From NCBI GenBank assembly GCA_001797255.1, contig MGOW01000069.1, positions 1 to 44,451 on the forward strand: a stretch of DNA of 44,451 nt, read 5' to 3'. This DNA comes from Clostridiales bacterium GWE2_32_10 (GTDB lineage: Bacteria > Bacillota > Clostridia > Lachnospirales > UBA12420). Both the position numbers and the translations under genes were made by a program. Every line of letters starts with the position of its first letter. Within the stretch, counting starts at the first letter, position 1. Below, in pieces: positions 16,130 to 43,341 of this stretch. The notes under the pieces were generated by a model. It saw nothing but the letters and a program-made list of their open reading frames with translations, was not told where the DNA came from and did not search any database.

Positions 16130-16912
16130 TTATACCGAATACTCCTTAATCTTTTTAAATAATAAAATAAGTATAGGTAGGCATATAATAGAAATAACAC
16201 CAATAAATCCTATAGCACCAATCTTTACTGACATGCTAGCATTTCCCTCTATATCACCTAAATCTAGTAAGCTTCGCATCAGTATAACCTGTGTAGCATT
16301 AATCACAAAATGAATTATTATACTACTATATATTGAGCCTGTTATATTTACTATATATACAAATACTATACCTAAAACAAATGCGTAAAAAAACTGTGTA
16401 AAATTCATATGCATAACCCCAAATATAAAACCATTTAAAACAGCAGCTGACTTTAGCCCTAGACCCCTCAAATCATATAAAATTATCCCCCTCATAAAAA
16501 TCTCTTCCATGATTGCTGGTATTATAGCTAAGGCTACAATCATTACCACGAATGATGTATTACTAAGTAGTGCCATATACTCCATAACCTTATCCCCAAA
16601 AAAAAGATTTGTTACACTTCCTATTAGCATTGAAACTGGTTGAATAAAGAAACCAATCAATATAAGTATAAATATTTGCCTATAGGATATCTTTTTAAGT
16701 TTTAAACACTCTTTTATATTAATATCATATTGAAAAATATACAAATATATTAAACACGGTACCACTATAATACATATACTAACAATAGCATTTGCAACAG
16801 CAGTATCTATATCTATTCTACTAAAAATCATATCATAAACTATGTTAGGTACAGTATACATCAGAAAAATAATACATATTGAAAATGCTACCGCTCGAAT
16901 TGCCCTTTTCAT
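16130..16912 (-). CDS. CPBP-family intramembrane metalloprotease
   Basis: 260 residues with about seven or eight membrane helices. The three CPBP (Abi/CAAX-protease-like) motifs are visible: MEEIFMRG (glutamates plus arginine), FGVMHMNF (histidine) and HFVINATQ (histidine and asparagine). These residues bind metal within the membrane, so it is probably active. Start ATG follows GAGGAGTTATAA. It lies 35 bases after the last pilin-like gene and before the operon terminator, so it is probably co-transcribed. CPBP proteins process membrane-anchored peptides or give bacteriocin immunity. Here it could process leaderless pilins in place of a prepilin peptidase, which is only inference. Confidence 0.88.
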   Translation of the reverse strand: MKRAIRAVAFSICIIFLMYTVPNIVYDMIFSRIDIDTAVANAIVSICIIVVPCLIYLYIFQYDINIKECLKLKKISYRQIFILILIGFFIQPVSMLIGSVTNLFFGDKVMEYMALLSNTSFVVMIVALAIIPAIMEEIFMRGIILYDLRGLGLKSAAVLNGFIFGVMHMNFTQFFYAFVLGIVFVYIVNITGSIYSSIIIHFVINATQVILMRSLLDLGDIEGNASMSVKIGAIGFIGVISIICLPILILLFKKIKEYSV

Positions 16913-16947
16913 TTATAACTCCTCATTTCTTAGTTTTCACCCTTAAC

Positions 16948-17976
16948 TTATTTTAGAGTATATCCCGAAACAATATATTCTTTAAAATCCATTTGCTTAT
17001 CTTTTATAGTTAAATAACTATTTTCTTTATATATAACTAAAAATGTAACACCTTGAAAAAAATTTAATTCCTTTGTTCTTATATCCTGTAACAAACTTTC
17101 AGAATTTGGGAAGTTTATCACTAATCCATCTGTATACTCAGATATAACTTGGTTTATTTTTTTTATAATTATTTCATTTTTTTCTTTCTTGGTTAAGCTA
17201 ATATAGTCAATATGATAAGGAATTATTATTTTATCAACAGCAGGATCAGAATCATAATATCCCACCTCATCATCATTCATTACATTGATATACTTATTAT
17301 ATACTTTATTATCTCTAGTGTTTAAATAATATAATTCTACTACTCCATCATTGTCCATATCAATTTCATATTTCTTAAAATATTCATAATTCGGCACCGT
17401 TAATGACACTCCATTACTAAAATTTTCTTTCTTGCTAACCATTTCGAAATTCTCATCATAAACATAATCATCTTTTGTATTTAAATAATATACATCAGTT
17501 CCAACGGTCTTTGTAAAATAATATGCTGGTCCAAAAGTATCAACTATACCATCTTTATATTTTTGAAATTCTGTTTTATAATCATAATTAGTTGAATTTT
17601 GATGTCCTACAATTACAAATCTATTGCTATATATTAATACCTTAGCCAATATGCTAGCTTGTATTTTGGAATATAATTCAGGATCTTGATAATTTTTAAA
17701 TAGTAGATTATTAAATTCAACTAGCAGTTTAGGCTCATCTATGTCTATGTTTGATTTATTCACATCAAAATTCTCCATATATCTTCTATAGCCTTTAGAT
17801 AATTCATCATAATTAACCTGCTCTATCTCTATAGTATCAGCTAATGCAGTTGTAGCAAAATATAAATTCTTTTTTAGATTTTCTTTATTTGAATTTGTAG
17901 TAGTTAAGAAAACAGCTGGTACAAACAAAAATATTATAAAAACTGATATTACTATAGCCGTCAATCCCTGCTCCAT
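16948..17976 (-). CDS. Pilin-like/TadE-like membrane-anchored protein
   Basis: 342 residues from the ATG of MEQGLTAIVISVFIIFLFVP, which has a GGTG binding site 6 bases upstream; an ATG four codons earlier has worse spacing. One N-terminal membrane helix is followed by a long exported domain. The EQGLTAIVI start resembles the first turn of TadE/Flp-like pilins. An internal repeat is seen (YYLNTKDDYVYDENF and YYLNTRDNKVYNKYI), the second copy behind a DMDNDG loop like the calcium loops of dockerins and EF hands. It is the largest of six single-helix proteins at the end of the Tad module, so it may be a tip or adhesin subunit. No database family is recognised. Confidence 0.7.
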   Translation of the reverse strand: MEQGLTAIVISVFIIFLFVPAVFLTTTNSNKENLKKNLYFATTALADTIEIEQVNYDELSKGYRRYMENFDVNKSNIDIDEPKLLVEFNNLLFKNYQDPELYSKIQASILAKVLIYSNRFVIVGHQNSTNYDYKTEFQKYKDGIVDTFGPAYYFTKTVGTDVYYLNTKDDYVYDENFEMVSKKENFSNGVSLTVPNYEYFKKYEIDMDNDGVVELYYLNTRDNKVYNKYINVMNDDEVGYYDSDPAVDKIIIPYHIDYISLTKKEKNEIIIKKINQVISEYTDGLVINFPNSESLLQDIRTKELNFFQGVTFLVIYKENSYLTIKDKQMDFKEYIVSGYTLK

Positions 17977-18021
17977 AAAAATCACCATCCTTAAAATTTA
18001 TTAACATATAACTACCTTTAT

Positions 18022-18933
18022 TTAATTTTGTATAAATTCTACTATCTTCTCATAATCAGCCATATCTTTTCCTGCTGGTAAAACACCCGTAGCTGGTATA
18101 GGATAATATTCAGTTACTTGTCTATAAAATTCAACCGTATCAAATATATAATCTTTACCTAAATTATTCCCCCCCGTATATTGTTCATTCAAATCTGACA
18201 CATTTCCATACTCTGGATTTGAAATGTTATAATTATACCCCGTTCCACCTGATTTCTGATCCATCTCTGTTTTTACATTTATTGTAACTGGACATAGTTG
18301 GGGATCATCCATTCCATTATCAGTTATGTCTATATTTGTTACCCATCCTTCTTTATTCTTTTTAGCTATCTCTGCTTTTAGTTCGTATCCTTTTACTATA
18401 CTCTTTGCATTACGCCCGACTACAACTGTCTTTAGCGACTTTATTCTCATATCTGTATATTGATTTATCATCCCAAAAAATGGAGCATTTAGTAGCTTTA
18501 CAAATAAAGTCTGGTCCTGAGCCTCAAGATATATGCTAACTTTATCCCCTATGTGCATAGGAACAGGTTTTCCAATTATTGTTAATATTTCATCTTCTTT
18601 TGTACTTCCATCTGGATTTTTATTTGTTAGCTCTCCAAAGTCAATCCAATCTTTTTTCCAATATGTATCGTAAGTGCCTGGTTTTACTTTCTTTTCATAT
18701 TTTATAACTACCTGATATTTAGTTTCTGATCCGTATAAAAATACTTGCTTCTTAAGATATTCATATATATCATCAGTAAATACACCCGTAGTAGCTACTG
18801 TATCTAAAATCGAGTAATTTATTTCATTTATGTTATTTTTCAACACTTCATGTAAAAAGAAAAAAGATATTAACAATATAACATATGTTAAAAAAAGTAT
18901 AGTTATTATCGTATTTAGCATCCTTCCTATCAT
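18022..18933 (-). CDS. Membrane-anchored exported protein, pilus-module subunit
   Basis: 303 residues. It has one helix at the very N-terminus (MIGRMLNTIITILFLTYVIL), then a soluble beta-rich domain with no motif I recognise (for example ITDNGMDDPQLCPVTINVK). The topology matches a minor pilin or TadE/TadF-like pseudopilin. It has a strong AGGAGGTGATATT binding site. Gaps to both neighbours are under 35 bases, consistent with one operon. The role as a pilus subunit rests on position and topology only. Confidence 0.65.
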   Translation of the reverse strand: MIGRMLNTIITILFLTYVILLISFFFLHEVLKNNINEINYSILDTVATTGVFTDDIYEYLKKQVFLYGSETKYQVVIKYEKKVKPGTYDTYWKKDWIDFGELTNKNPDGSTKEDEILTIIGKPVPMHIGDKVSIYLEAQDQTLFVKLLNAPFFGMINQYTDMRIKSLKTVVVGRNAKSIVKGYELKAEIAKKNKEGWVTNIDITDNGMDDPQLCPVTINVKTEMDQKSGGTGYNYNISNPEYGNVSDLNEQYTGGNNLGKDYIFDTVEFYRQVTEYYPIPATGVLPAGKDMADYEKIVEFIQN

Positions 18934-18959: not shown

Positions 18960-19442
18960 TTAAGTATGATTATTAATTAATAAAAATGTTATCTTTTTTG
19001 TTATTTCGTCATATGAAATCCGATACTTTGCTTCTAATAGTCCTGTTTTGTCAGAATCAAAATTTGCATTTATATATTCCTCTATAAGCTTTATCTTACT
19101 TTGCCTCTGCTTATAGTCATCTGCACTGTCATATTTATATTGCAAATACGTACTACCTGGGCTAGATGAGTATTTTTCTATATCTATTTCAGATATTTCT
19201 ACGTTTGTTTCATGATATCTTACAAATGCTAGTATTTCTGCCCCTGTAAGTTCTCTGCTCTCATGTGAATATTTTATATATTCATCATATTTAAAGGAAT
19301 TATATTTACTATTTTCTTGGGTATCTCTAACATAACTTCCTTTTTTAAGAGCATCGGAGCTACTATTTGAAATATTGATTATTATTACTACAAAAACTAG
19401 TATTACAATCCCAATCATCACATCATACACTATATTATCCAA
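18960..19442 (-). CDS. Minor pilin-like protein
   Basis: 160 residues from a TTG start, preceded by GGAGGGATAAGC. The N-terminus MDNIVYDVMIGIVILVFVVI is a membrane helix with no leader. A motif TGAEILAFVRYHE (~residue 67) also occurs as TGTELLEFVRYNE in the next upstream gene and as TAADLLAYINDEA in the 20645-21010 gene, so these three are diverged paralogues. It lies 20 bases from the 19462-19884 gene. A structural subunit of the Tad-like filament is likely. Confidence 0.7.
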   Translation of the reverse strand: MDNIVYDVMIGIVILVFVVIIINISNSSSDALKKGSYVRDTQENSKYNSFKYDEYIKYSHESRELTGAEILAFVRYHETNVEISEIDIEKYSSSPGSTYLQYKYDSADDYKQRQSKIKLIEEYINANFDSDKTGLLEAKYRISYDEITKKITFLLINNHT

Positions 19443-19461: not shown

Positions 19462-19884
19462 TTAACTCTTTAATTTAAATTCGCAACTAGTATTTCCCAT
19501 ACTAATCACGTCATAGTCTGCATCTAAGTAACCCTTTTCATCTGTCCCAATTGTATATAAACCTACTTTTATCTTTTCTATTGCTTCTGCATATTTGTTA
19601 GGTCTATCTGCATTATTAGTAATTGTCATCGTTTCTGAACCATGAAAGTCAATTTTTATAATAATATCGCTCTTTTCATTATATCGCACAAATTCAAGTA
19701 ATTCCGTTCCTGTATATATGTCCCCAGATTTAAGCATACTATTTGCAGATAGATTTCCTGTTTGGTTATTCACAGTTGATGTTTTATATACTGCATCATA
19801 GTTGCTTTTATACAGCTCTACAACCATTTGTACTATAATAAGTACCACTACAGTGGATATTATAATATATACTATATTCTTCAT
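19462..19884 (-). CDS. Minor pilin-like protein
   Basis: 140 residues, starting MKNIVYIIISTVVVLIIVQM, one leaderless membrane helix. The shared motif TGTELLEFVRYNE lies near residue 60; after it comes a short beta-rich domain (IIKIDFHGSETMTITNN). Strong AGGAGGTG binding site. It is the first gene after the hairpin that follows the major pilin gene, so it should be made in smaller amounts. Paralogue of the neighbours at 18960-19442 and 20645-21010. Confidence 0.7.
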   Translation of the reverse strand: MKNIVYIIISTVVVLIIVQMVVELYKSNYDAVYKTSTVNNQTGNLSANSMLKSGDIYTGTELLEFVRYNEKSDIIIKIDFHGSETMTITNNADRPNKYAEAIEKIKVGLYTIGTDEKGYLDADYDVISMGNTSCEFKLKS

Positions 19885-19971
19885 AAGCCAACACCTCCTA
19901 AAAAATATGTGTAATTTATTCCTCTTTGTTATATTATATCACTTTTATTTCTATTTTGAAATAGTTTTTAT

Positions 19972-20011
19972 AAAAAAATAACAATAACTTTAAAGTTATT
20001 GTTATTTTTTT
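19972..20011. terminator. Strong hairpin downstream of the major pilin gene
   Basis: Perfect 20-base arms meeting at the centre: AAAAAAATAACAATAACTTT (19972-19991) and its complement (19992-20011), with a T7 run. It lies about 30 bases after the pilin stop and inside the operon, so it probably works as a partial terminator or mRNA 3'-end stabiliser that raises pilin over minor subunits. Confidence 0.85.
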
Positions 20012-20039
20012 ATAAATCACATATATTTCTTAAATTTAA

Positions 20040-20561
20040 TTATTTTCTTACATATAATACGAATGTGTGCGGTACACCTGTAGTATCTTTTGCACTAACA
20101 GACATTCTTCTAAACACAACATTTGCTGTTATTGTAGGTGATGCTGTTGCAGTTGTTACTTGGATACCTCCATTATTTCCCGCTGGTGTATTAGTCCATA
20201 AACCATTGTTAGCTGGATTTACTGCTTCACCATATGATAATGATGTTGCTGCTACAGCACCGGTATTTAAGTATACTCCTATTCCTGTAGATGTTGTAGT
20301 TACTGACATTGCTGCATTTGCTGTATTATAAAAAGCTACATATGTGTTTGGATCTGTAGCAAGAAGTGGATATTCTGCAGCCACTTGTGCTGATGTTACT
20401 TCTGACGATCCTGCTCCACCCATACTAGTTGATACTGAATCAATTTGTCCTTGGGCTTTTCCTCCTACTGACTCAACTTGTCTACCTTGAGGCATTACTA
20501 CTACTGCTATAAGACCTACTACTATAACAACCATAATTACTACCGCTATAATCTTTTCCAT
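20040..20561 (-). CDS. Probable major pilin of the Tad-like appendage
   Basis: 173 residues. It starts MEKIIAVVIMVVIVVGLIAV, an uncharged helix right at the N-terminus with a glutamate at position 2. No prepilin leader or G|xxxxE cleavage site is present. The exported part (about 28-173) is rich in A, T, S, V and G and low in charge (for example AAMSVTTTSTGIGVYLNTG, VTTATASPTITANVVF), the composition of abundant surface-fibre proteins. It has a perfect AAAGGAGGTG binding site, a consensus promoter one gene upstream and a strong hairpin directly after, all pointing to high expression. Pilin identity is inferred from these features and context. Confidence 0.72.
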   Translation of the reverse strand: MEKIIAVVIMVVIVVGLIAVVVMPQGRQVESVGGKAQGQIDSVSTSMGGAGSSEVTSAQVAAEYPLLATDPNTYVAFYNTANAAMSVTTTSTGIGVYLNTGAVAATSLSYGEAVNPANNGLWTNTPAGNNGGIQVTTATASPTITANVVFRRMSVSAKDTTGVPHTFVLYVRK

Positions 20562-20644: not shown

Positions 20645-21010
20645 CTAAGTCTTTGTAAATGTAAAGCTAACTTTATCATATGTATATTTTGTATCCAGAT
20701 TTACTTTCAGATAGCCTATAATATAATTTTTTTCACCAGCATCTGAAATATTATAAATCTGGCTAGGTGAGAGAATTATGATTATCAAGCTGCTATCTGC
20801 CTCATCATTAATATACGCTAATAGATCAGCCGCTGTATATGACGATTCGCTCACACTACTTTTATTATTATCTATCTGCTTAACCTGATCTGTTTTTTCT
20901 ACAGTTGATACGCCTATCAAACCTATATTTGAACTAAATAATGATATCATAGTATATATTATTATCATAAATATAAACCCTATAATAATGTCATATATTA
21001 AATCATGCAT
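20645..21010 (-). CDS. Minor pilin-like protein
   Basis: 121 residues, starting MHDLIYDIIIGFIFMIIIYT, again a leaderless helix. The start resembles MDNIVYDVMIGI of the 18960-19442 protein, and TAADLLAYINDEA (residue ~60) is this family's shared motif. It is the first gene after the internal consensus promoter and stands directly before the major pilin gene. Start ATG follows AAGGAAGTGAGTAA. Likely a filament initiator or minor subunit; function inferred from position. Confidence 0.7.
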   Translation of the reverse strand: MHDLIYDIIIGFIFMIIIYTMISLFSSNIGLIGVSTVEKTDQVKQIDNNKSSVSESSYTAADLLAYINDEADSSLIIIILSPSQIYNISDAGEKNYIIGYLKVNLDTKYTYDKVSFTFTKT

Positions 21011-21047: not shown

Positions 21048-21075
21048 ATTATACCACTATATCCTATAATGTCAA
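21048..21075 (-). promoter_or_regulatory. Consensus sigma-A promoter for the pilin genes
   Basis: TTGACA (21075-21070), 16 bases, TATAAT (21053-21048) on the minus strand, both hexamers perfect. It lies in the 84-base gap between the TadC-like gene and the first pilin-like gene, giving the pilins a transcript separate from the machinery genes. Confidence 0.85.
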
Positions 21076-21094: not shown

Positions 21095-22255
21095 TTATAC
21101 TAACGCATCTATTTTATAAGCTGACATCCATGGTAGTATTAAATACATTATAACGATAACAATAAGTAACATATATCCTACTATACCAAAAATATGTATT
21201 AATTCTACCGTCTTTTTTATCTTCCTTGCTTGAGTTCTTTTATCTAAATTAAACTCATTTTTTATATTCAATATTGCTTGATCAAAATCATAATTATTAG
21301 CTTCATCTAATTTTTCAAAAAATAATTTTTCCTGTAGACTTTTCGATGCTCTTATATATAGTAAATATATTTGAGTATTTGGTAAATAATTTTTCTTGTT
21401 TTTATCTTGTATTTCTTCTAATGTTTTTGTGTAGTATGTTGATTTTTTTATTAAATCTTTTAAAACCTCCATAAAATCCACAGGCTTTATGCTTCCGTTC
21501 ATTATTATAAGACGTTTCATAAATCCTAGTTCTCTTCGAGCATCTACTTTTATAAAAAAGTTATATAATAATACAAAAAGTTCTGGTATAAAGCCAACAG
21601 CTAATGAAATTAAAAATATTAACGCTACATCCCATTCTCTAATCTCATAGTATTTTTTTAATTTGTAATATACTTCGTTCGCTAAAGACTCATCACTTAT
21701 TGATGTATTATTTCCTAAACCTTTTATTACTGGAACTAAATAATCTTGTATTGAATTTTTATCCATACTTTTAAGTCGTTGTTCAGTAATTAATCTTAAA
21801 GCTTCATCTAAACACTTTTTCTTAAACTCAATTACCTGTGGCTTAATTTTTTCATCTATCTTTTCTGTTTGTACCATTATTACATCTTGCTCATATTGAA
21901 ACTTTGTGTATAATTCATCTGTATATATCATAATATCTGTAGTCTTTACTACTATAGCTACTGTTATTACTATAAAAAATAATACAAGCTTTACTCCTAT
22001 AAATCGTTCAACAGAAAATTTTGTATATATAAGGAACTTTTTATACCATATATAAAAACGAGTATCTTCTTTATATATGTAGCTTCTTAAAAAGTATTTA
22101 TATCCTTTCTTCGCCCTTTCATAATTATACATAATATTTTTTTCTATATTTATTATTATTTTAATAAACCAATCCTGATTTATCAAATAATATACTAATA
22201 AAAATATACCTAATAAAAATAATACTATATAAATTATTTGAATAAGTATTTCCAT
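21095..22255 (-). CDS. TadC-like pilus assembly membrane protein (T2SF/GspF family)
   Basis: 386 residues from the ATG 7 bases after GGAGG (a TTG just upstream is the alternative). Helices near 5-27, ~88-110, ~215-240 and ~355-378 enclose two cytoplasmic helical regions. The second of these (~245-345; MKRLIIMNGSIKPVDFMEVL) resembles the T2SF domain of TadB/TadC. Such inner-membrane platform proteins couple the CpaF/TadA ATPase to pilin insertion. It follows the TadB-like gene and precedes the pilins, the normal Tad gene order. Similarity is weak by eye; order and topology carry the call. Confidence 0.75.
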   Translation of the reverse strand: MEILIQIIYIVLFLLGIFLLVYYLINQDWFIKIIINIEKNIMYNYERAKKGYKYFLRSYIYKEDTRFYIWYKKFLIYTKFSVERFIGVKLVLFFIVITVAIVVKTTDIMIYTDELYTKFQYEQDVIMVQTEKIDEKIKPQVIEFKKKCLDEALRLITEQRLKSMDKNSIQDYLVPVIKGLGNNTSISDESLANEVYYKLKKYYEIREWDVALIFLISLAVGFIPELFVLLYNFFIKVDARRELGFMKRLIIMNGSIKPVDFMEVLKDLIKKSTYYTKTLEEIQDKNKKNYLPNTQIYLLYIRASKSLQEKLFFEKLDEANNYDFDQAILNIKNEFNLDKRTQARKIKKTVELIHIFGIVGYMLLIVIVIMYLILPWMSAYKIDALV

Positions 22256-22338
22256 CAAAATTCCTCCAATACAATTAAAAACTAATACCTAAAACTACCG
22301 TCTGTTACTCTCAATTTACTAATACAATTAAACTAAAT

Positions 22339-23346
22339 TTACGCTGATCTTTCCATAAATAACAAAAATGCAATATATGCTAATACTGCTACTATTATAA
22401 TTACTGGCAGTTTTTCACCTAATGATGACTGATAGAAATTAGCTGCTTTTTCACCAATTGAATCTTTGTTAAATTTTTCAATCATAGGTATACTAATTGG
22501 AATAAATAAGGATAAGAATATATATGATTTACTTGCTGCTGAAAGATCCGCTCTGTTTTCAATTTCTTCTAATATTTCTTCTGTAAGTGTCTCAAATTGC
22601 TCTTTTATCATATTATTTCCACCCTTATAATGTGCTTGCTTTATAAGACTAAGTAGTATTGTTAAAAATTCATCTTTATAGGTTTCATCTATACTGTTTA
22701 ATACAAAGTCTATTTCCTCCATATTATTTTTCTTTAGCACATTATATATCTTTATCATTTCTTTTCTTATAACTATATCAAAATCCTCCATCGAAACATT
22801 AATCGCTTTGAGTATATTACCTTTACTTATATATCTACTATTTAATATTTTAAATGTGTCAGGTAATTTTTTTATAAAATTCATCCTCGCTATAGCAAAA
22901 AACATATATATTATTACTGTTATCATTACTAAAGCTATGGCAAAGTAGAACATTGATATATACCAAAATCTATTTCCTGGTACAAACACCATTATTATAA
23001 GAACTGATACCCCTATTGATAAGACTAGTGTGCTTGTCGCATATTCAAGATTCTTTTCAAATGAATATTTTGTAAACATCCCTATCTTAATAGCAAGTTT
23101 TCTAAGTATAATATAAAAAAACTTAATTTTTATTATTTTAACTGTAAAAATATGTAAAATAGACTTTTTATCTTTTTTTATCAAATACCTCATTTTTACT
23201 TTTTTATATCTATATTGATCATATACGTGATTAAATATTATAATCAATCCAGATATAAGTAACGTCAGCCATATTAGATTTTGAGGTGTGAGTAATGCAG
23301 CAATCTTAGTAATTAAAACCCCTATTTTTTCTGTCACACCATTCAT
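22339..23346 (-). CDS. TadB-like pilus assembly membrane protein (T2SF/GspF family)
   Basis: 335 residues. Helices lie near 23-40, ~105-150 (two) and ~270-330 (two). The cytoplasmic stretch between (about 155-260; LPDTFKILNSRYISKGNILK and FLTILLSLIKQAHYKGGNNM) is the T2SF-type helical bundle. It overlaps the CpaF-like ATPase gene by 4 bases (ATGA), so translation of the two is coupled, as expected for a motor and its platform. The ribosome binding site AGGTG lies inside the ATPase gene. Confidence 0.8.
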   Translation of the reverse strand: MNGVTEKIGVLITKIAALLTPQNLIWLTLLISGLIIIFNHVYDQYRYKKVKMRYLIKKDKKSILHIFTVKIIKIKFFYIILRKLAIKIGMFTKYSFEKNLEYATSTLVLSIGVSVLIIMVFVPGNRFWYISMFYFAIALVMITVIIYMFFAIARMNFIKKLPDTFKILNSRYISKGNILKAINVSMEDFDIVIRKEMIKIYNVLKKNNMEEIDFVLNSIDETYKDEFLTILLSLIKQAHYKGGNNMIKEQFETLTEEILEEIENRADLSAASKSYIFLSLFIPISIPMIEKFNKDSIGEKAANFYQSSLGEKLPVIIIVAVLAYIAFLLFMERSA

Positions 23347-25034
23347 TCTTTACACCTACTTCGCTCTTGCTTTTTTACTTCTAATATTTTATCTATCCGA
23401 TTTTTTTCTTCTGAAAAATATTCTTTAAATTGTTCTATTCCTTCCTCACCAATATACTTCTTTATCTTTGTGAAATATTGTTCAGAAGGCATTGTTTTAG
23501 GAACCCAAATGTCATAATCTCTATCATATTGAATAATCGTATTGTATTTATATGCTTTTGTATATAAATACTTAGATAATCCCATTTGAGCCAATTTAAG
23601 AAAATTCATCATCCTTTGCTTTAAAGTACCCTCTTCTATATTATCTATATAATGATCCTGTTCTACATATTCTACTTCTACTACGTATTCAACAATAATT
23701 CTACCATTTGGCAATTTTGCTAAATGAAATACTGTATCTAAACCTCTCGCTATATCTGTCTCCGCTATTGCACCATCACTATACATGTCAGTTCGTAGCA
23801 TAAGATTTCTTAGGTTTGTAACAACCTCGTACGGCGATAATGAGTGAAGCGTTCCACCAACTCCAGAATTAAGACGCAAACTCGCATTTATAAGTTCCCC
23901 TACTTCTTCTGGCTTTGTAATCTCACCTACATATAGTACATCCCTTGCCATCTTAAGCATTATTTGAAAGCATCTCTTTATATCCATTGTTTCAGTTTCT
24001 ATAAGGGTAATAACATTCTTTCTTGGATACTTCTTTCTAGATTGTAACTCGTTTTGTGTATCTAAAACTCCTATTCCCCACTCATCTGGAACCTTTTCAA
24101 GCATGGCAAGCAGAAATGTCGATTTACCAACTCCCATGTCTGAACCAGTAATAAAGTGAGAACCCCTTCCTTTTTGATTTAAGCACCCAAATGTATATAT
24201 AAGCTGATCTATTGTATTATAGCTATCTCTCATTTCCTCTAGTGTAATCTTTGATAAGTTAAATATACGTTCATTATAGTACAAGTCATGTGTAGGTGTA
24301 CATCCATAACCTGCAACTGTTATACGACTTGAATTTCTCTTTGCCGCAACAAGAACCGGATTATGCTGATCATAATTATTTGGTGAATCTTGTGTTGTCT
24401 TCTTTTGTATATTAAGAATTACACTTTCATCTTTAAACTGTAGAAATTTTAAATGTATTTTATCACCCTTAATAACATATATGTAGTTAGTATCTAATAT
24501 CCCTATTTCATTTATATTATGATGTTGTATAGTATCTACACAATCTTGACCATATTCACGTGCATATACTAATGTTGCCATTATCTTAAATCTATTTGCT
24601 TGATTACTCAAAAACTCCCTTATTAAATCACTTTCCTTGTCAATTATGTCCCTTATTTCTTCCTCTGTAACCCTTATAATAATATTATATTCTTTTATTA
24701 TATCTCCTATATCCATTACATTCATTAAAAACTCAAAGCTTATTATAATATCGTTATTCTGAATATTTTCAAAATCAATAAGTTCATCAACATCTATTCT
24801 ATTTTTTTTCATAAAATAAAGTAAAAATTTAGAATATTGATTTATAAGATATTCTCGTGCTTCCTTATTCCCTAAAGAAGCTGCATCTTTTAAACTTGTG
24901 TACGATGATATTTCAACTTCAGCTTGTTCTCGAGGTATATCATATATCTCAACATATTTATCTGCATTACTATAAGTTTCATCAATCTTACTTGTTATTA
25001 AATCATATATGGGAGTATCAAAAAACTTTGGCAT
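23343..25034 (-). CDS. CpaF/TadA-type secretion ATPase
   Basis: 563 residues. The N-terminal ~270 residues are a helical and beta region like the CpaF N-domain. The ATPase core has Walker A GSDMGVGKST (297-306), a Walker B-like DVLYVGE (365-371) and the family's histidine box GGTLHS (393-398). The Asp-box region reads LDTQNEL (~324-330), where relatives have E-D/T-x-E-L. This VirB11/GspE-class hexameric motor powers filament assembly at the membrane. The arginine-rich segment after Walker B, usually VGEVRGxE, is EITKPEE, so it is a diverged member. Start ATG follows AAGGAGTGATTTTTT. It is the only VirB11-class ATPase seen in the operon, so it may serve both the Tad and the type IV halves. Confidence 0.9.
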   Translation of the reverse strand: MPKFFDTPIYDLITSKIDETYSNADKYVEIYDIPREQAEVEISSYTSLKDAASLGNKEAREYLINQYSKFLLYFMKKNRIDVDELIDFENIQNNDIIISFEFLMNVMDIGDIIKEYNIIIRVTEEEIRDIIDKESDLIREFLSNQANRFKIMATLVYAREYGQDCVDTIQHHNINEIGILDTNYIYVIKGDKIHLKFLQFKDESVILNIQKKTTQDSPNNYDQHNPVLVAAKRNSSRITVAGYGCTPTHDLYYNERIFNLSKITLEEMRDSYNTIDQLIYTFGCLNQKGRGSHFITGSDMGVGKSTFLLAMLEKVPDEWGIGVLDTQNELQSRKKYPRKNVITLIETETMDIKRCFQIMLKMARDVLYVGEITKPEEVGELINASLRLNSGVGGTLHSLSPYEVVTNLRNLMLRTDMYSDGAIAETDIARGLDTVFHLAKLPNGRIIVEYVVEVEYVEQDHYIDNIEEGTLKQRMMNFLKLAQMGLSKYLYTKAYKYNTIIQYDRDYDIWVPKTMPSEQYFTKIKKYIGEEGIEQFKEYFSEEKNRIDKILEVKKQERSRCKE

Positions 25035-25040
25035 AAAAAA

Positions 25041-25898
25041 TCACTCCTTATTCTTTGTGAAAGATTTTAAAAATAAATTTTTAATACTTTCCCTTTGTCC
25101 TTGTTCATCCTTTATTAACGCATAATATACTTTATCATTTGATAAAATATACTTAACAAGTTGCTTTAACTGTGTTGTATAATTCCTCTTTTCTTTTATT
25201 TCACCCATAACAAGTCCTAATATTGAACCAAAATTACTTCCATTAACAACCTCTATATCAAAGTTAAGAGGAAATATTTCATTCTCATACCCTAACGCAC
25301 GAAGTTCTTTTTTAATAATTTTTAGGCTATATTCCATCACACCTGTTTCAGTATTATCAATATTTTTATTTAATACAAAAACAACTTTATCTTTATATTT
25401 TATATATATATGTTTCTCATATATCAACTGCATAACACTTTTTATTTGATTTATAACCACTACTATTATATCAGATTTTTCATAAAATGGTTCTGATACT
25501 GTAGGTATATTACTAGCTCCAATTGCATCAAGCACAGTAAAAGAATATGCCATCATTGAATATTCCAATAATGCCTCTGCCGAACTTTTATCTAGCTCAT
25601 AATAATCATTTGTAGCCATTATATCTATATAAGGATTAATGCTTTTTATACATGATTGAAAAGTATCCTTATTAAGTAATTTCGATTTATATAAGTTACA
25701 AAAATCATCAAGTCCTCTTGTTGCAGTGGTATCACAAAGGTAATATTCTATATCTTTACAATATTTATTAATATCTAATAGTATTACTTTGTCATCCTTT
25801 CCTTCTATTTTTAAATATTTGGCTATCATTGCTGCAATATTTATAGCGGTAGTTGTTTGCCCTAATCCTTTTTTTGGTGCTGTAACCGTTATTAACAT
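25041..25898 (-). CDS. CpaE/MinD-like ATPase with altered P-loop
   Basis: 285 residues. MLITVTAPKKGLGQTTTAIN is a MinD/ParA-type deviant Walker A. The signature lysine (first K) is kept but the second, phosphate-binding lysine is glutamine (GLGQTT, where KGGVGKTT is usual). Later parts fit the fold: VILLDINKYCKDIEYYL (Walker A' region) and FTVLDAIGASNIPTV (Walker B). CpaE/TadZ proteins place the Tad machine in the cell. It stands 6 bases upstream of the CpaF gene. Nucleotide hydrolysis is doubtful; it may bind ATP or act as a scaffold. Start ATG follows GAGGAGGGAG. Confidence 0.82.
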   Translation of the reverse strand: MLITVTAPKKGLGQTTTAINIAAMIAKYLKIEGKDDKVILLDINKYCKDIEYYLCDTTATRGLDDFCNLYKSKLLNKDTFQSCIKSINPYIDIMATNDYYELDKSSAEALLEYSMMAYSFTVLDAIGASNIPTVSEPFYEKSDIIVVVINQIKSVMQLIYEKHIYIKYKDKVVFVLNKNIDNTETGVMEYSLKIIKKELRALGYENEIFPLNFDIEVVNGSNFGSILGLVMGEIKEKRNYTTQLKQLVKYILSNDKVYYALIKDEQGQRESIKNLFLKSFTKNKE

Positions 25899-30283: not shown

Positions 30284-30327
30284 CACCATATTTTTTATTG
30301 AAATTTCTGTTAAATTTGTGTTACAAA

Positions 30328-32730: not shown

Positions 32731-32752
32731 TATTTTCACTCCTTTATTCTTT

Positions 32753-37282: not shown

Positions 37283-40198
37283 TTATATATGCGAAGAACT
37301 ATTTATTTTATCAATAGCATCAGCCTTAGCATCTAGCTTTTTCTTTTCTTGTTCCGCTTTAATCCTTCCTGCAGCAAACTTTTTAGGATCATTTGTTCCT
37401 GTTTTCATAATATTATATCCGCCTCGTACACCTTCCAATCCCCTAACAAATGTATTTTTATTAGTTGGGTTAAATTTAGCAAATCCTTTATCTAGTGTAC
37501 CACTAACTTTTTCATCTGCAAGCCCTTTAACTGAATTATAGCGACCTTTAGTCATACTAGCAAGTGGACTTGCCATACCTTCCTCGTCTATACCAGACAA
37601 TGATTTGAAGAATCCTCCTTGTAATGAGTTTTTAAGTGCCTTAGCAAGTTTTATTACCATTGTCATCCATACTAAATATAAAAGCCAATGATCGGTTGTC
37701 ATTTTCCCTAAGCCTATAGTTGCTACAAAAAAAACTAAAGCATATATAAATTGGGTTGCTGCATTTGTAAGAAGTTCACCCCACCATACTTTTATAAGCT
37801 CTGCATTTCTACTTATAGCCCATACAAATATTACTATAGGAGTTATGATATACATTACGGTCAGCATTACCTCCCTGACTAGAAATATAAATACTATAGT
37901 TAGTTCTATATACAATAGGTAAAGCCCACCTATTATATCCGCTACTGCATTTCCCGTGTCAAACTGATCTGCTATACTAAATTCATACTGAAATGGCAGT
38001 AGCATGGTAGCCATATTAAAGGCTATTAATATTCCTTGGAAAACAAAAGGTCCAACAGCTACAAAAACTAATGCTACAAAAAATCTTCTAAAATCATCTT
38101 TTATCTGAGTTATTTGATTATAATTAGAAGAATGTATAACATAGGAAAATCCAGTTTTTAACACTGCAATAAACATAAGCGGAACTGATATAGCAGCACA
38201 AGCTATATATCCTGCAGTATATGCGTCTAATTTCCCAGCTCCATCAAACGGTGCAAGATATTTATTTATATCACTCAAATTTATATTATCTCCAAAATCT
38301 TTTAATGTTATTAATTCTTCTATAGAAGTAAACCCAGGTATCCAATGGAAAATACCTCTTATCCCTGCAATTATAACTTTTGCAAATCCTGAAAATAAAT
38401 ACCATACAGTAGAAGATCCAGTATCTACACTGGCATCATCTATATCACCTGGTGTATACGAACTAGTAATCGTAGTTAATGCATTATTTAATTCTACATA
38501 TGCCAAATTAACTATAGTAAGTGCAAAGCCTACTATAAAAACTCCGATAAGAATATTTTTAAATCCCTCCATTATTTTTACACGTTCTTGTGGATTATCT
38601 TTCGTTGCACTACCTATAGCTCTAAATCCTATAAATAATATAGCTATTAATACAAGAAAAGCTAGGGCAGGCATAGCCATGTCTTGTATCCATTCGTTTA
38701 ATTTTATTGTATTAGCCTCTGATACGTCTTTACGGTCAACTTTCCAGTCAGTACTTGTAGCTGTATATGTACCTGTAGATTGTTTATAATTGTTTAATAG
38801 CTGTGATAAGGGAATTGTAACTATTAATTCATCTTTTAGTGTATCTTTCGATGTAGTTTCTTTTGTCTCTAAAGGGCTTCCTTCTGTACCTTCCCCGTTA
38901 CTTGTATTATGTATATGAATTTCTATATTTACTTTTCTACTATTAATATTATCTTCTAAATCATTATCATCTGGAGTTGTTCCATCCGACACAGCAAAAA
39001 TTCCATATATACGGTCATTTACATTCTCAAGTTCTCTAAAATTACTTTGGTCTCCGTCACTTATCTTAGAACCCTTATTATAATAAACATTTAAATTATC
39101 TAAATTATTAATTCCTACACTGACATGTAAATCGTATCTTTTATTATACCCTACATACTCTAAAAAATTATTTGGACCTGTTACTTTTATAATCTCATTA
39201 TCCAATAAATAAGCCTTATACCCATTACCGAGTTCTAAATTAGCTAAACTATCGTCAGCTTGTACTGCCGATAGTGTTGTATAATCACTATATTGAACAG
39301 TAGGTGCATAGTTTGTGCCATACTCAGGAGTATAATCTTGTTTCCATGTAACACCATCCATAAGCATATAACCTGTAATAAAAATAGATCTAAACTCTCT
39401 GTCTTGAAAATGTATTGAATATTTTGTATTATTATCACTATATGTAATATAAATCAATTCATTTGGATCACTGCCTAATGTTATTGATTCTCCAACTTTA
39501 TCTTCATCACTAACATTTCCCGCATATATATTAGCAACCGCTCCAGTTATAGCACCAGTAGTATCATCCACCGTAAATGTAACCTTTATTACATTTCCAG
39601 CTAAATCACTGAGCTGCGTCTTATCCCTACCTACTTCACTTAGTGTAAATACTTTCTCTTTATAACTAACCGCCATATCATTTTGATTAATAGTAATGTC
39701 TTCTTTAGCATAATTTCCAAGACTAATAGCTGAATAATGAGAATTACTTTTTATATAATCCCTTAGAATTCCATATTTTGCATCTTTTTCACCTGAATAT
39801 TCAGAATTTATTTCATCTCTTATTTGCTCTACTGTTGTAAAGCTCGCAAGTTCTGAATCTGTTATTTTCGCAAATTCACCCTCAAAAAATATAATTCCAC
39901 TGTTATTTTCATCTATAAATTTTTTAAGATACTCAAAAGGAATTTTCTCAGTTACACCATATTCTATTCCATTACTTAAATAGTTAGGTAAACAAGAAGT
40001 TGATGAATCCGTACAAGTACTTAATCTTAATATAACAGATTTCTCATCATTTAATTTCTGATACGTTCCAGTACTTGTACCCGTTATAACTGGCAGAGTA
40101 TCTAAAGCCAACGAATAATTAAGAGTCATCCCCATTCCAATAACAAATATAACACACACTACTAATATTTTTTTCATCTTTCCCATCTTCTTCATCAT
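37283..40198 (-). CDS. TrbL/VirB6-like polytopic channel protein
   Basis: 971 residues from an ATG with GGTGAT 6 bases upstream; several in-frame starts lie close together, so the exact start is uncertain. A signal peptide (KKILVVCVIFVIGMGMTLNY) is followed by a ~490-residue exported region (VTGTSTGTYQ-like, beta-rich). Next come about seven membrane helices between ~500 and ~860 (PALAFLVLIAILFIGFRAIG, ILIGVFIVGFALTIV, FFVALVFVAVGPFVFQGILI, MLTVMYIITPIVIFVWAI), then a charged cytoplasmic tail (~870-971). The helical block with long loops is the TrbL/VirB6 pattern, the inner-membrane channel of type IV secretion. Downstream of VirB4 as in Gram-positive conjugation operons. Confidence 0.82.
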   Translation of the reverse strand: MMKKMGKMKKILVVCVIFVIGMGMTLNYSLALDTLPVITGTSTGTYQKLNDEKSVILRLSTCTDSSTSCLPNYLSNGIEYGVTEKIPFEYLKKFIDENNSGIIFFEGEFAKITDSELASFTTVEQIRDEINSEYSGEKDAKYGILRDYIKSNSHYSAISLGNYAKEDITINQNDMAVSYKEKVFTLSEVGRDKTQLSDLAGNVIKVTFTVDDTTGAITGAVANIYAGNVSDEDKVGESITLGSDPNELIYITYSDNNTKYSIHFQDREFRSIFITGYMLMDGVTWKQDYTPEYGTNYAPTVQYSDYTTLSAVQADDSLANLELGNGYKAYLLDNEIIKVTGPNNFLEYVGYNKRYDLHVSVGINNLDNLNVYYNKGSKISDGDQSNFRELENVNDRIYGIFAVSDGTTPDDNDLEDNINSRKVNIEIHIHNTSNGEGTEGSPLETKETTSKDTLKDELIVTIPLSQLLNNYKQSTGTYTATSTDWKVDRKDVSEANTIKLNEWIQDMAMPALAFLVLIAILFIGFRAIGSATKDNPQERVKIMEGFKNILIGVFIVGFALTIVNLAYVELNNALTTITSSYTPGDIDDASVDTGSSTVWYLFSGFAKVIIAGIRGIFHWIPGFTSIEELITLKDFGDNINLSDINKYLAPFDGAGKLDAYTAGYIACAAISVPLMFIAVLKTGFSYVIHSSNYNQITQIKDDFRRFFVALVFVAVGPFVFQGILIAFNMATMLLPFQYEFSIADQFDTGNAVADIIGGLYLLYIELTIVFIFLVREVMLTVMYIITPIVIFVWAISRNAELIKVWWGELLTNAATQFIYALVFFVATIGLGKMTTDHWLLYLVWMTMVIKLAKALKNSLQGGFFKSLSGIDEEGMASPLASMTKGRYNSVKGLADEKVSGTLDKGFAKFNPTNKNTFVRGLEGVRGGYNIMKTGTNDPKKFAAGRIKAEQEKKKLDAKADAIDKINSSSHI

Positions 40199-40298
40199 AA
40201 CCCCATCACCGCCGTTCTCCAAATTAAACTACCCGCAATTCCATACTAAAATTATACACTATTTTACATATTTTGTCAATATATAAAATAACTCCCCA

Positions 40299-42137
40299 TC
40301 AAGTCGTTACATAATCCCACTCGAAGTCAAAAGGTATCATCTTCATAACAACCAAATCCGTATCAGTCATAAGCAAACCTTCACCTTGCCCAAACGATGA
40401 TATCATTTCCTTACATGCTTCTGATAACACAAGATACTGAGCTACCTCTCTTGCCACATTCGCATCTTGTTTCATAATAAACTTAGTCGCACATTGGTTT
40501 ATAACAGCTTTCCCCGACTCTGATGATAAAAATTCATTTACTTGCTGTGAAGCTATAAGTAGCGATATTCTATACTTACGTCCACGTCTTGCTATCGACT
40601 CTAAGAAAACTGCAGCGTGAGGATATTTTGCAAACAACCAACCTTCATCGACGATAACACGTTTATGCATTGCTTTAAACTTCCAGTTAGAAAATCTACT
40701 CCAAATCCATGACATTACATTAACAACGGCAAAGAATTTCATAAATTCGTCTGTCAAATGTTTTAAATTTATACCTATGATACGTTTTCTTAAATCGATT
40801 TTAGTTTGTCCATCAAACATAGATAGCGACCTTCCGTCAACTAATATCTTCATCATTTCAGCGAGTCCCTTAGTAGGCTCATAATTATTTAATTCTACTC
40901 TCATTTCTGAAAGTGTGGGCATTTCTTTTTTTACCTTACCTGTAAAAAACTTTCCGTGTAATTCTTCCCTAACTTCTCTATATAAAGACTCTGGATCTCT
41001 TGTTATACCTTTTCTTGTATACAGTGTGTTTATAACCTCTTCAACTATAGATATTTCTTGACCTCTTAATGGTTCCTCTCTAAACTTCTCACAAAACATC
41101 GAAATCAATTCTCTTATCTCTGATAACTTACTATATATATTTACCTCTTGTCCTTTATCCCCATCTTCAATATCAAGCTCAAAAGGATTGATACCAGAAA
41201 ACTCCCCAGATTTTATTTCGAAATATTGTCCTCCAAGATGCTTTATAAGATTTTCATACTCGTTTTCTGGGTCAAGTATTATAATCCACTCACCAGAAGC
41301 TGCTGCGCGAGCTGCTATAGTCTTCATTGTAACAGATTTACCAGCTCCAGCCATACCAAATATAGCCATCATCGGATTAGTAAGTAGTGGTGGACCTATA
41401 AAGCTATCAAAAAATACTGGTGAATTTGTATAAAGGTTATTCCCTAGATATATCCCTCCAGGATGTGACATTTCTGTATTACCAATAGGCACTAGACTTG
41501 CAACTACTCCTGTAACTGCATTTCTCATATTATCCATATACTTTATGTTCTTATAAGGAAGTGATGTAATGTATGCTTTAGCCTGGTCATATATACATAC
41601 TCTAGGTCTCATACCCTTTCTAGCACATATATCCTCTAACCATTCCCCTTTTTGGTCTAGCTCTTCCATATTTTTTCCCCATAAAGTAATAAGTATCTGT
41701 ACATAACTCATCCTATCTCTATTAGTTTGAACTGCCTCTCTCATAGCATCAAGGTCTGCAACTGCTTGTTGTGAACCATAATCTATCATATTACCTCTTT
41801 TTAGCTTCATATACATATTTGACTGATATGAAACTAATTTACTTGTAAGCTTTTTTACAACCTGTGCGTCTGGTACATTTTCTATATAAGTACTTACACT
41901 TATATTATCTATTTCAAATAAATCATTTAAAATCCCTACATGCATTTTCCTAGGGTATTTATCTATAACATATACTCTGGCATATTTGCCTGGACCAGTA
42001 TATACATAATCTTTACCTTCCTCAAAAGCATCAGGCAAAAACAAATCTATAATATCCCTTCTAGGCATAAAGCTTCTTTCATCCTTTTGAGCCACTTCTT
42101 TTTCTTTTTTCTTTTTCTTTACATTCTCTATTGCCAT
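40299..42137 (-). CDS. VirB4-family type IV secretion ATPase
   Basis: 612 residues. A CagE/TrbE/VirB-type N-domain (~20-240) precedes a RecA-like motor: Walker A GMAGAGKS (261-268), LDPENEYENL (~288-297), Walker B VIVDE (494-498), and the SRRGRKYRISLLIASQQVN-like arginine/glutamine segment (~515-535, IARRGRKYRISLLIASQQ). VirB4 is the most conserved part of type IV secretion and powers substrate transfer or machine assembly on the membrane's inner face. Start ATG follows GGAGGTGTGACGT. It stands 57 bases after the TraC-domain gene. No VirD4 coupling protein accompanies it in the window. Confidence 0.95.
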   Translation of the reverse strand: MAIENVKKKKKEKEVAQKDERSFMPRRDIIDLFLPDAFEEGKDYVYTGPGKYARVYVIDKYPRKMHVGILNDLFEIDNISVSTYIENVPDAQVVKKLTSKLVSYQSNMYMKLKRGNMIDYGSQQAVADLDAMREAVQTNRDRMSYVQILITLWGKNMEELDQKGEWLEDICARKGMRPRVCIYDQAKAYITSLPYKNIKYMDNMRNAVTGVVASLVPIGNTEMSHPGGIYLGNNLYTNSPVFFDSFIGPPLLTNPMMAIFGMAGAGKSVTMKTIAARAAASGEWIIILDPENEYENLIKHLGGQYFEIKSGEFSGINPFELDIEDGDKGQEVNIYSKLSEIRELISMFCEKFREEPLRGQEISIVEEVINTLYTRKGITRDPESLYREVREELHGKFFTGKVKKEMPTLSEMRVELNNYEPTKGLAEMMKILVDGRSLSMFDGQTKIDLRKRIIGINLKHLTDEFMKFFAVVNVMSWIWSRFSNWKFKAMHKRVIVDEGWLFAKYPHAAVFLESIARRGRKYRISLLIASQQVNEFLSSESGKAVINQCATKFIMKQDANVAREVAQYLVLSEACKEMISSFGQGEGLLMTDTDLVVMKMIPFDFEWDYVTT

Positions 42138-42194
42138 ACGTCACACCTCCATATTATTTTGTTTCCTATGTAACTTAATGATAGAAAAGCCTTT

Positions 42195-42995
42195 TTATTT
42201 ATTACTATTTTCTAATTTTTCGCCTACACTATATGTACTAAACACATCATTTTCTAACATATGCTCTATTGAAATATTAGAGCCTTTGTTTAACACATTA
42301 GCAAATAATTGAGCTATTTTCTCTTTTTCAAGAACATTTACCCTCATTTTAGCCATTGATAATGCACCCATTACTGTTCCTACTCTATTTCTAAGCTCTG
42401 ATAATGCTCGTTTCTTATCAACCACGCCATCTATACCAATAACGCAATAGCTTTTTCTAACATATACATGCCTTGAATTTTCTAATTCTAGTAATCTTTC
42501 ATATAAACTCAAAGAATAATCCTTAAGCTTTTGATCTATTGCATCATCTATATCCTTAGTAACGGCAAGTGCCTTCTCTGCTGAAACTTTAGTATCAACC
42601 TTTGTAGAAGTAGTAAAAAATTGGATTGAAAAATTCAAAGCAAGTCCTAGCTCTACTAATGAATTTTCAAAAATGTTTTTTTCGTCATCGTTTAGCAGTG
42701 CAAAGTCTGGAGAAGATATCGAAAGAATTATTCTAAGTCCATTACCTCTCTTTAGCTTTATTATAGAGTTCTCTATATCCTCTATTTCTAAGTATTCCTG
42801 CAACTTACTTCTCTCTACCTCTTCTTTTTTTATGTCCCTTACATTTTCACCAGCATTAGGATTTAAATCAAATTTACCTATACTAATATTTACTCCAGCA
42901 CCTGACTGCTTTCGATAAACTAACCAAAATCCTATACCTGATGCTATCGATGCAAAAACCATAACCATTGTGATAATATTACTTATATTTCCCAT
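42195..42995 (-). CDS. Membrane protein with TraC/VirB4 N-terminal-like domain
   Basis: 266 residues from the ATG 6 bases after GGAGGTG. One N-terminal helix (ITMVMVFASIASGIGFWLVY) is followed by a domain (~90-245) with the pattern of the VirB4/TraC N-domain: SLYERLLELENSRHVYVRKS, then CVIGIDGVVDKKRALSELRN and RVGTVMGALSMAKMRVN. It has no P-loop, so it is not an ATPase. Similar stand-alone TraC-like proteins occur beside VirB4 in clostridial conjugation modules. It probably docks VirB4 to the membrane. Confidence 0.72.
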   Translation of the reverse strand: MGNISNIITMVMVFASIASGIGFWLVYRKQSGAGVNISIGKFDLNPNAGENVRDIKKEEVERSKLQEYLEIEDIENSIIKLKRGNGLRIILSISSPDFALLNDDEKNIFENSLVELGLALNFSIQFFTTSTKVDTKVSAEKALAVTKDIDDAIDQKLKDYSLSLYERLLELENSRHVYVRKSYCVIGIDGVVDKKRALSELRNRVGTVMGALSMAKMRVNVLEKEKIAQLFANVLNKGSNISIEHMLENDVFSTYSVGEKLENSNK

Positions 42996-43026
42996 ATAAA
43001 ACACCTCCGCTTAGTTATATTAATCT

Positions 43027-43341
43027 TTATTTATCGTTATACTTTATTACTTTTTTCCTCAATTTAAATCTCGTCATTTTAAAAACATATGAATCTGAAT
43101 TCATACTATCCATGGAGCCAAAAGCTAAAAATGCAGATATAGCAAGAGCTATTAAAAGAATTACAACTTTCAATATTACAATAAATATATTAAAGTTAGT
43201 TAACCAACTCATATCTACAACAAACTCAACTATAGCAACAATCAAAGCTATAGAAAGCCATCCTGCTTGCCTAAGAGATAAATATCCACCTATCAATTTA
43301 TCCTCTTCTTCCATATCAAAAGGAACTCCAAACATCCTCAT
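43027..43341 (-). CDS. PrgI-family (VirB3-like) membrane protein
   Basis: 104 residues. FGVPFDMEEEDKLIGGYLSL is the start signature of the PrgI family; two helices follow at ~30-48 and ~52-75, with a basic tail (FKMTRFKLRKKVIKY). PrgI proteins accompany VirB4 in Gram-positive type IV systems such as pCF10 and Tn916-like elements. It is the first gene of the appendage operon; start ATG follows GGGGGTGTTTTAG, and the operon promoter is at 43402-43430. Confidence 0.88.
   Translation of the reverse strand: MRMFGVPFDMEEEDKLIGGYLSLRQAGWLSIALIVAIVEFVVDMSWLTNFNIFIVILKVVILLIALAISAFLAFGSMDSMNSDSYVFKMTRFKLRKKVIKYNDK

What the first reader, a model, noticed from the sequence alone, without database searches (positions are those of the whole stretch)
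16130..43341. Type IV secretion core and Tad pilus module joined in one operon
Seen: 17 minus-strand genes (about 27 kb) with mostly small gaps or overlaps, PrgI-like, TraC-like, VirB4, VirB6/TrbL-like, amidase and LT-M23 genes first, then TadZ-, CpaB-, CpaE-, CpaF-, TadB-, TadC-like genes and pilin-like genes. Known: these belong to two machines that are normally separate. Inference: a composite trans-envelope filament or secretion system in which VirB4/VirB6 and CpaF/TadBC share one envelope channel and dedicated wall hydrolases. I know of no named system with this layout.
Basis: partly seen in the sequence, partly recalled or inferred. Interest (0 to 1): 0.88.

Follow-up and report, generated by a model that had tools for sequence, protein, structure and literature searches.

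The report
Chromosomal secretion channel fused to Tad pilus
A small gut Clostridia genome carries, in one conserved chromosomal gene cluster, the core of a conjugation-type secretion channel next to a divergent Tad-pilus machine, a pairing also found on several Bacillota plasmids, which suggests that the two may work together to move something between Gram-positive cells without the usual DNA-nicking enzyme.

Summary
Window 16130-43341 holds 22 (not 17) co-directional minus-strand genes: PrgI, a split VirB4 N-domain, VirB4, a VirB6-like protein, two wall hydrolases, then TadZ/CpaB/CpaF/TadB-like genes and leaderless pilin-like genes. It is not chance. The whole cluster recurs in two congeners and another family. 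VirB4, CpaF and a chromosomal VirD4 occur in exactly the same 5 of 196 genomes of the order. The same VirB4 clade sits within 20 kb of CpaF in 13 sampled loci, including plasmids pVpro, pESS17301a and pGspE55-1.

Two corrections. (1) "One operon" is too simple: near-perfect promoters precede VirB6 and the pilins, a terminator-like hairpin follows the probable major pilin, and a conserved hairpin sits exactly at the T4SS|Tad junction. (2) The pairing is not unprecedented: Tad genes sit in conjugation loci of several Bacillota plasmids, and a C. acnes plasmid was published with both.

What is unusual is this chromosomal version: no MOB_P relaxase found, coupling proteins elsewhere, no prepilin peptidase in the locus, and pilins lacking leaders that canonical Tad pilins of the same genome keep. 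Best reading: a chromosomally fixed T4SS-Tad hybrid exporter derived from a conjugative element. Joint function and substrate are inferred.

The parts
43027..43341 (-). PrgI / VirB3-like membrane protein
   Evidence: PF12666 46.6 bits; independent plasmid profile 69 bits
   Evidence: 34% identity over 188 aa to residues 38-220 of the 871-aa fused VirB4 of pESS17301a
40299..42137 (-). VirB4 ATPase, Walker A GMAGAGKS, Walker B VIVDE intact
   Evidence: P-loop_TraG/AAA_10/DUF87; best PDB relative 4ag5, a VirB4-like protein, 185 bits; motifs
40251..40279 (-). perfect sigma-A type promoter before VirB6
   Evidence: 12/12 match, perfect also in G013 and G032; absent in G020 where the gap is closed
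37283..40222 (-). VirB6-like polytopic protein with internal VirB2/T4SS_pilin domain (aa 512-573)
   Evidence: PF18895 31.5 bits
32753..37213 (-). 1486-aa protein: long N-terminal region, one TM, C-terminal Amidase_2 wall hydrolase
   Evidence: PF01510 46.4 bits
32230..32739 (-). single-TM protein, possible VirB8-like (NTF2 topology only suggested)
   Evidence: AF2 pLDDT 51.7, weak SnoaL/NTF2-type matches, none significant
30815..32188 (-). lytic transglycosylase + M23 peptidase (VirB1-like)
   Evidence: PF01464, PF01551
30328..30783 (-). single-TM protein similar in layout to 32230-32739
   Evidence: weak
30236..30284 (-). conserved hairpin/palindrome exactly between the T4SS and Tad halves
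   Evidence: z -4.5 (window) and -10.9 (G013); present in G032; A-U to C-G paired change
28797..30173 (-). TadZ/CpaE-like MinD-type ATPase 1
   Evidence: CbiA PF01656 31.7 bits; 70-77% identical in congeners
27022..28776 (-). TadZ/CpaE-like ATPase 2, membrane-anchored
   Evidence: weak CbiA; paralogue of the previous gene
26006..26935 (-). CpaB/RcpC-like
   Evidence: TIGR03177 43 bits, below cut-off 71
25041..25898 (-). ParA/MinD-like ATPase 3
   Evidence: weak AAA_31 and ParA_partition matches; conserved position
23343..25034 (-). CpaF-type assembly ATPase
   Evidence: family profile: CpaF structures 226 bits > FlaI 138 > VirB11 91; outside-only profile 71.7 bits
22339..23346 (-). TadB-like platform protein
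   Evidence: outside-only profile 31.7 bits, HHalign 94%
21095..22258 (-). second platform-like membrane protein ('TadC' by position)
   Evidence: position only; sequence test negative
21048..21075 (-). perfect extended -10 promoter for the pilin genes
   Evidence: 12/12; 12/12 in G032, 11/12 in G020, 10/12 in G013
20645..21010 (-). leaderless pilin-like protein p121
   Evidence: N-terminal TM at residue 8, no prepilin leader
20040..20561 (-). probable major pilin, leaderless (MEKIIAVVIMVV...)
   Evidence: own promoter upstream and terminator directly downstream; start conserved in G013, G020, G032, G002
19967..20016 (-). 23-bp hairpin with U7 tail, terminator-like
   Evidence: similar hairpin at the same place in G013 (L026 6907-6940)
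19462..19884 (-). leaderless pilin-like protein p140
18960..19442 (-). leaderless pilin-like protein p160
   Evidence: long N-terminal helix plus small head in a low-confidence model
18022..18933 (-). TadE/DUF4320-like minor pilin, leaderless (assignment by N-terminal resemblance and position)
   Evidence: linked to the T4SS locus in G002
16948..17988 (-). TadF-like minor pilin, leaderless (assignment by N-terminal resemblance and position)
   Evidence: linked to the T4SS locus in G002
16130..16912 (-). CPBP-type intramembrane protease-like last gene (by inspection)
   Evidence: 53-54% in congeners, followed there by a strong hairpin

Best explanation
The cluster is a chromosomally fixed hybrid machine descended from a conjugative-element T4SS with a linked Tad module. 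Inferred mechanism: PrgI, VirB4 and the VirB6-like protein form the membrane translocation channel. The amidase and SLT-M23 proteins open the thick wall. A CpaF-driven, TadB-like platform with TadZ and CpaB extends a short filament or pseudopilus of leaderless pilins that reaches the target cell or pushes through the wall. VirD4 coupling proteins encoded elsewhere on the chromosome feed substrate. Because no MOB_P relaxase is found, the substrate is more likely protein (or DNA handled by an unrecognised relaxase) than a conjugative element. Shown: gene content, conservation, co-occurrence, intact VirB4 motifs, promoter-like sites and hairpins. Inferred: joint assembly, filament, substrate.
For: The cluster keeps its content and nearly its whole order in G013, G020 and (over two contigs) G032. 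VirB4-clade, CpaF and VirD4-A share the same 5 of 196 genomes; G014, G078 and G146, as close as G020 by TypA (70-71%), lack all three. VirD4-B of G020, 8 kb from the cluster, passes the CD1115 conjugation cut-off (309.7 vs 250) and is related to pVpro VirD4 (30%, 1e-63). CpaF lies within 20 kb of this VirB4 clade in 13 sampled loci, in either module order. In G002 the TadE/F-like genes sit just upstream of VirB2-PrgI-VirB4 while the rest of Tad is on other contigs. Predicted VirB6-to-TadC transcription crosses the junction. The genome also holds separate canonical Tad loci with normal leaders, so this one is specialised.
Against: About 18 VirB4-clade loci show no Tad within the flank read, though several are cut by contig ends. 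The VirB4-CpaF trees agree weakly. The pilins have their own promoter and terminator, and the junction has a hairpin, so the halves may be expressed apart. VirB8 and TadC are not established by sequence. Leaderless pilins may not polymerise. G000 is 92% complete, so a relaxase could be missed; PF13814 and PF01076 searches were uninformative.
Confidence: 0.5

Rival explanations
1. Two separate machines that share a locus and regulation: a T4SS channel, and a Tad-like pilus acting only as a mating or attachment pilus, as the R64 thin pilus does for its T4SS. They cooperate in contact but do not share a channel.
For: Weak VirB4-CpaF tree agreement and swapped module order; separate promoters and terminator for pilins, hairpin at the junction; many VirB4-clade loci without Tad; the R64 and PAPI-1 precedents described in PMC12857230.
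Against: Strict co-occurrence in the order and TadE/F-like genes placed with the T4SS in G002 suggest tighter dependence.
Confidence: 0.3
2. An integrated conjugative element or its remnant, still or recently mobile, with relaxase and oriT elsewhere in the draft genome.
For: Closest outside relatives are plasmid-borne with VirD4, integrase or relaxase nearby; the genome is a 104-contig draft, 92% complete.
Against: No PF03432 relaxase in any of the 5 genomes; no integrase next to it; chromosomal flanks: TypA, CtpA, mnmG/mnmE in G013, argS/soj/spo0J in G020; conserved over genus and family.
Confidence: 0.12
3. A DNA-uptake or adhesion device: the Tad-like filament binds surfaces or DNA and the VirB-like channel imports rather than exports.
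For: VirB4/VirB6-like proteins serve DNA import in archaeal Ced systems, and a Micrococcus tad locus is needed for transformation (cited in PMC5696575); CedB is among weak NCBIfam matches.
Against: VirD4 coupling proteins and wall hydrolases fit export; no link to com genes seen.
Confidence: 0.08

Closest known systems
Plasmid-borne T4SS-Tad clusters: pVpro (Vallitalea pronyensis), pESS17301a (Clostridioides), pGspE55-1 (Geobacillus)
   Same: PrgI - VirB4 N-domain - VirB4 - VirB6 - M23/NlpC hydrolase plus CpaB-CpaF-TadB-TadC on one strand
   Different: Plasmid-borne; pilins have prepilin leaders; A24 peptidase in the operon of pESS17301a; VirD4, and in pGspE55-1 a Replic_Relax protein, nearby. 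The window copy is chromosomal, leaderless, without A24 or VirD4 in the locus.
Cutibacterium acnes linear plasmid with tad and conjugation loci (PMC5696575)
   Same: VirB4- and TcpC-like genes next to a tad locus with a detected pilin
   Different: Actinobacterial plasmid with a TraB/FtsK-type translocase; that paper calls the functional link unclear
PAPI-1 of Pseudomonas aeruginosa (described in PMC12857230)
   Same: VirB4 and VirD4 paired with a type IV filament, proposed as a chimeric transfer machine
   Different: Gram-negative, a type IV pilus rather than Tad, mobile island
cst-type clostridial conjugation loci (PMC5770547)
   Same: VirD4, VirB6, VirB4, SLT-NlpC hydrolase
   Different: cst has a relaxase; the words Tad, pilus and CpaF do not occur in that paper's text
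Patescibacteria chromosomal T4SS (PMC12102498, PMC12857230)
   Same: Chromosomal monoderm T4SS with VirB2-like pilins, needed for life on host cells
   Different: No Tad module reported in the text; separate T4P

Membership tests
Monoderm (MPF_FATA-like) conjugative T4SS | VirB4 ATPase | tested here: met
Monoderm (MPF_FATA-like) conjugative T4SS | VirB3/PrgI next to VirB4 | tested here: met
Monoderm (MPF_FATA-like) conjugative T4SS | VirB6 polytopic channel protein | tested here: inconclusive
   position and T4SS_pilin domain; no VirB6/TrbL family match
Monoderm (MPF_FATA-like) conjugative T4SS | VirB1 wall hydrolase | tested here: met
   SLT+M23 and Amidase_2
Monoderm (MPF_FATA-like) conjugative T4SS | VirB8 NTF2-like protein | tested here: inconclusive
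   low-confidence model, no significant fold match
Monoderm (MPF_FATA-like) conjugative T4SS | VirD4 coupling protein | tested here: met
   in the genome, not in the locus
Monoderm (MPF_FATA-like) conjugative T4SS | relaxase of the element | tested here: not met
   no PF03432 match in G000, G013, G032, G002, G020; PF13814 and PF01076 searches uninformative. So not filed as a conjugation system.
Tad/Flp pilus | CpaF/TadA ATPase | tested here: met
Tad/Flp pilus | TadB and TadC platform pair | tested here: inconclusive
   TadB met, TadC by position only
Tad/Flp pilus | CpaB/RcpC | tested here: inconclusive
   TIGR03177 43 bits, below cut-off; outside-only profile misses it
Tad/Flp pilus | Flp pilin with prepilin leader (G before the N-terminal helix) | tested here: not met
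   all six pilin-like ORFs start at or within a few residues of the hydrophobic helix; canonical leaders exist in other Tad loci of the same genome. So called Tad-like, not a canonical Tad pilus.
Tad/Flp pilus | prepilin peptidase in the locus | tested here: not met
   only A24 gene found in G000 is on contig C75
PAPI-1-type T4SS/T4P chimera | filament required for VirB4/VirD4-dependent transfer | not testable with these tools
   needs mutants

The most novel reading that the evidence does not exclude
A chromosomal, relaxase-less T4SS-Tad hybrid that injects protein (or chromosomal DNA) into neighbouring cells in a Gram-positive lineage, with leaderless pilins assembled without prepilin peptidase.
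Probability: 0.2. Interest if true: 0.88.

Novelty: new variant of a known kind. Interest (0 to 1): 0.62.

Why it matters
Monoderm T4SSs mostly lack known pili, and how they cross a thick wall and reach partners is open (PMC12857230). Recurrent pairing of VirB4/PrgI with CpaF/TadB on plasmids, and its fixation on chromosomes with VirD4 but no MOB_P relaxase, makes the idea of a Tad-powered T4SS testable. Leaderless pilins, if assembled, would break a basic rule of type IV filament biogenesis.

Tried and rejected
Chance juxtaposition or mobile boundary at 30.2 kb: rejected. Strict co-evolution as one unit across Bacillota: rejected, trees agree weakly. CpaF as VirB11: rejected, CpaF structures score far higher. 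'TraC-like' separate protein: rejected, it is a split VirB4 domain. Viral origin: no relative in viral contigs; phage-collection hits are about 25% identical in the listed records, all unannotated faecal contigs. Structure models of the VirB8 candidate and of p160 were too poor to use. The search for related loci in genome contigs gave only two close relatives. Replic_Relax and Mob_Pre searches rang in no control and prove nothing. A first iterative profile run timed out and was rerun in a lighter form.
Full report
Observation. The window (44,451 bases, contig C69 of a 1.87 Mb, 92% complete draft) carries 22 consecutive minus-strand genes from 43341 down to 16130, with gaps of -4 to 155 bp. 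The first half is a monoderm T4SS core: PrgI, VirB4, a VirB6-like protein with an embedded VirB2-type pilin domain, an Amidase_2 protein and an SLT-M23 protein. The short gene between PrgI and VirB4 is not a separate TraC: it matches the N-terminal domain of the fused VirB4 on pESS17301a. The second half holds two TadZ-like MinD-type ATPases, a CpaB-like protein, a third ParA-like ATPase, a CpaF, a TadB-like protein, a further membrane protein in the TadC position, and six pilin-like proteins. CpaF is firmly CpaF-type. TadB is supported by profiles that contain no sequence from this lineage; TadC is not.

Not chance. The order PrgI-VirB4-VirB6-amidase-SLT/M23-TadZ-TadZ-CpaB-ParA-CpaF-TadB-TadC-pilins-CPBP is kept in G013 and, over two contigs, in G032; G020, in another family, keeps PrgI-VirB4-VirB6 followed by TadZ-CpaB-ParA-CpaF-TadB-TadC-pilins. 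Searches of the same 196 genomes of the order found close CpaF and the chromosomal VirD4-A only in G000, G013, G032, G002 and G020, the same five that hold the close chromosomal VirB4 (two Vallitalea-family genomes hold a 40-43% VirB4, in one on a plasmid). These genomes may share ancestry, so the co-occurrence is not a set of independent events, but G014, G078 and G146, as similar to the window genome in TypA as G020 is, lack all three.

The wider picture. A tblastn of the Vallitalea VirB4 found the gene on plasmid pVpro and relatives on many Bacillota plasmids, the best at 25-36% identity. pVpro, pESS17301a, an Aneurinibacillus plasmid and pGspE55-1 all carry VirB4-PrgI together with CpaF, TadB and TadC, in either module order. 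C. difficile pCd5_2 and Terrisporobacter pTPHSE1 carry Tad genes beside VirD4 and a distant VirB4. In sampled genomes of the class and phylum the VirB4 clade is fairly common (16 of 391 and 30 of 398 genomes), and a CpaF lies nearby in G917, G861, G711, G933 and G879 but not in about 18 others. The VirB4 and CpaF trees correlate weakly (r 0.28-0.41) while VirB4-PrgI correlate strongly (0.75). So the modules have been joined or swapped several times. Recurrent joining is better evidence for a functional link than a single inherited neighbourhood.

What distinguishes the window's lineage. (a) It is chromosomal: beside mnmG/mnmE and rnpA in G013 and beside rsmG-argS-soj-spo0J and a VirD4 in G020. 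(b) VirD4 genes are in the genome but not in the cluster. No PF03432 relaxase is found in the five genomes. (c) The pilin-like proteins start at or within a few residues of the hydrophobic helix in the window, G013, G020, G032 and G002, whereas plasmid and other-genome counterparts have a leader ending in G. The same genome's other Tad loci (contigs C5, C15) keep canonical leaders with Flp1-like and TadE domains, and the only A24 peptidase found is unlinked. (d) In G002 the TadE/TadF-like genes precede VirB2-PrgI-VirB4, while TadZ-CpaF-TadB-pilins are on contigs C67 and C119.

Expression layout. Perfect TTGACA-N16/17-TATAAT sites lie before VirB6 (kept in G013 and G032) and before the pilins (12/12 in G032, 11/12 in G020, 10/12 in G013). 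A 23-bp hairpin with a U7 tail follows the 173-aa pilin, marking p121-pilin173 as a separate unit and pilin173 as the probable major pilin. The junction between the halves has no U-tailed terminator but holds a long hairpin conserved in three congeners, with a paired A-U to C-G change. It could be an RNA processing or stability element or an operator. So 'joined in one operon' should read: one co-directional cluster with at least three predicted transcription units, of which the middle one, VirB6 to TadC, spans the junction. All of this is sequence prediction.

Mechanism. Most likely: a VirD4-fed VirB4/VirB6 channel with wall hydrolases, served by a CpaF/TadB-driven filament or pseudopilus. 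The joint machine, the filament and the substrate are inference. A close rival is a T4SS plus an accessory contact pilus. Precedents exist: the C. acnes plasmid with tad and conjugation loci (PMC5696575) and PAPI-1 with VirB4/VirD4 and a type IV pilus (PMC12857230). The 2025 T4SS nomenclature review does not contain the term Tad or CpaF. I therefore call it a new variant of a known kind.

Limits. The genome is a draft; the organism is known only as a relative of MAG UBA12072 and a horse-faeces MAG; VirB8 and TadC remain unproven; the two structure models were too weak to use.

Noticed in passing
window 30236-30284 (-); L025 15683-15733; L168 4592-4642: Long conserved hairpin/palindrome exactly at the T4SS|Tad junction, without a U tail, absent in G020.
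   Followed up: partly
window 923-5176 and 5226-8288 (-): Two giant RCC1-repeat surface proteins, one with SLH domains; SLH or very large proteins also follow the Tad half in G020 (L030) and pVpro (L044).
   Followed up: partly
L027 and L028 (G002 C48): Several successive large VirB6-like genes (1399-1580 aa and a further piece), an unusual VirB6 expansion.
   Followed up: no
L037 4811-8982 (G020): A CD1115-type VirD4 sits directly downstream of soj-spo0J at the chromosomal origin region.
   Followed up: partly
L171 and L172 (G000 C15): A second Tad-type cluster with two different CpaF-like ATPases about 11 kb apart.
   Followed up: no
L053 8949-10574 (-): VirD4-A is a solitary chromosomal coupling-protein gene preceded by a small membrane protein (135 aa), present in the same five genomes.
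   Followed up: partly
L112, L114, L116 (G900, G742, G880): Three chromosomal loci of one genus with this VirB4 clade plus VirD4 10-16 kb downstream and no Tad genes.
   Followed up: no
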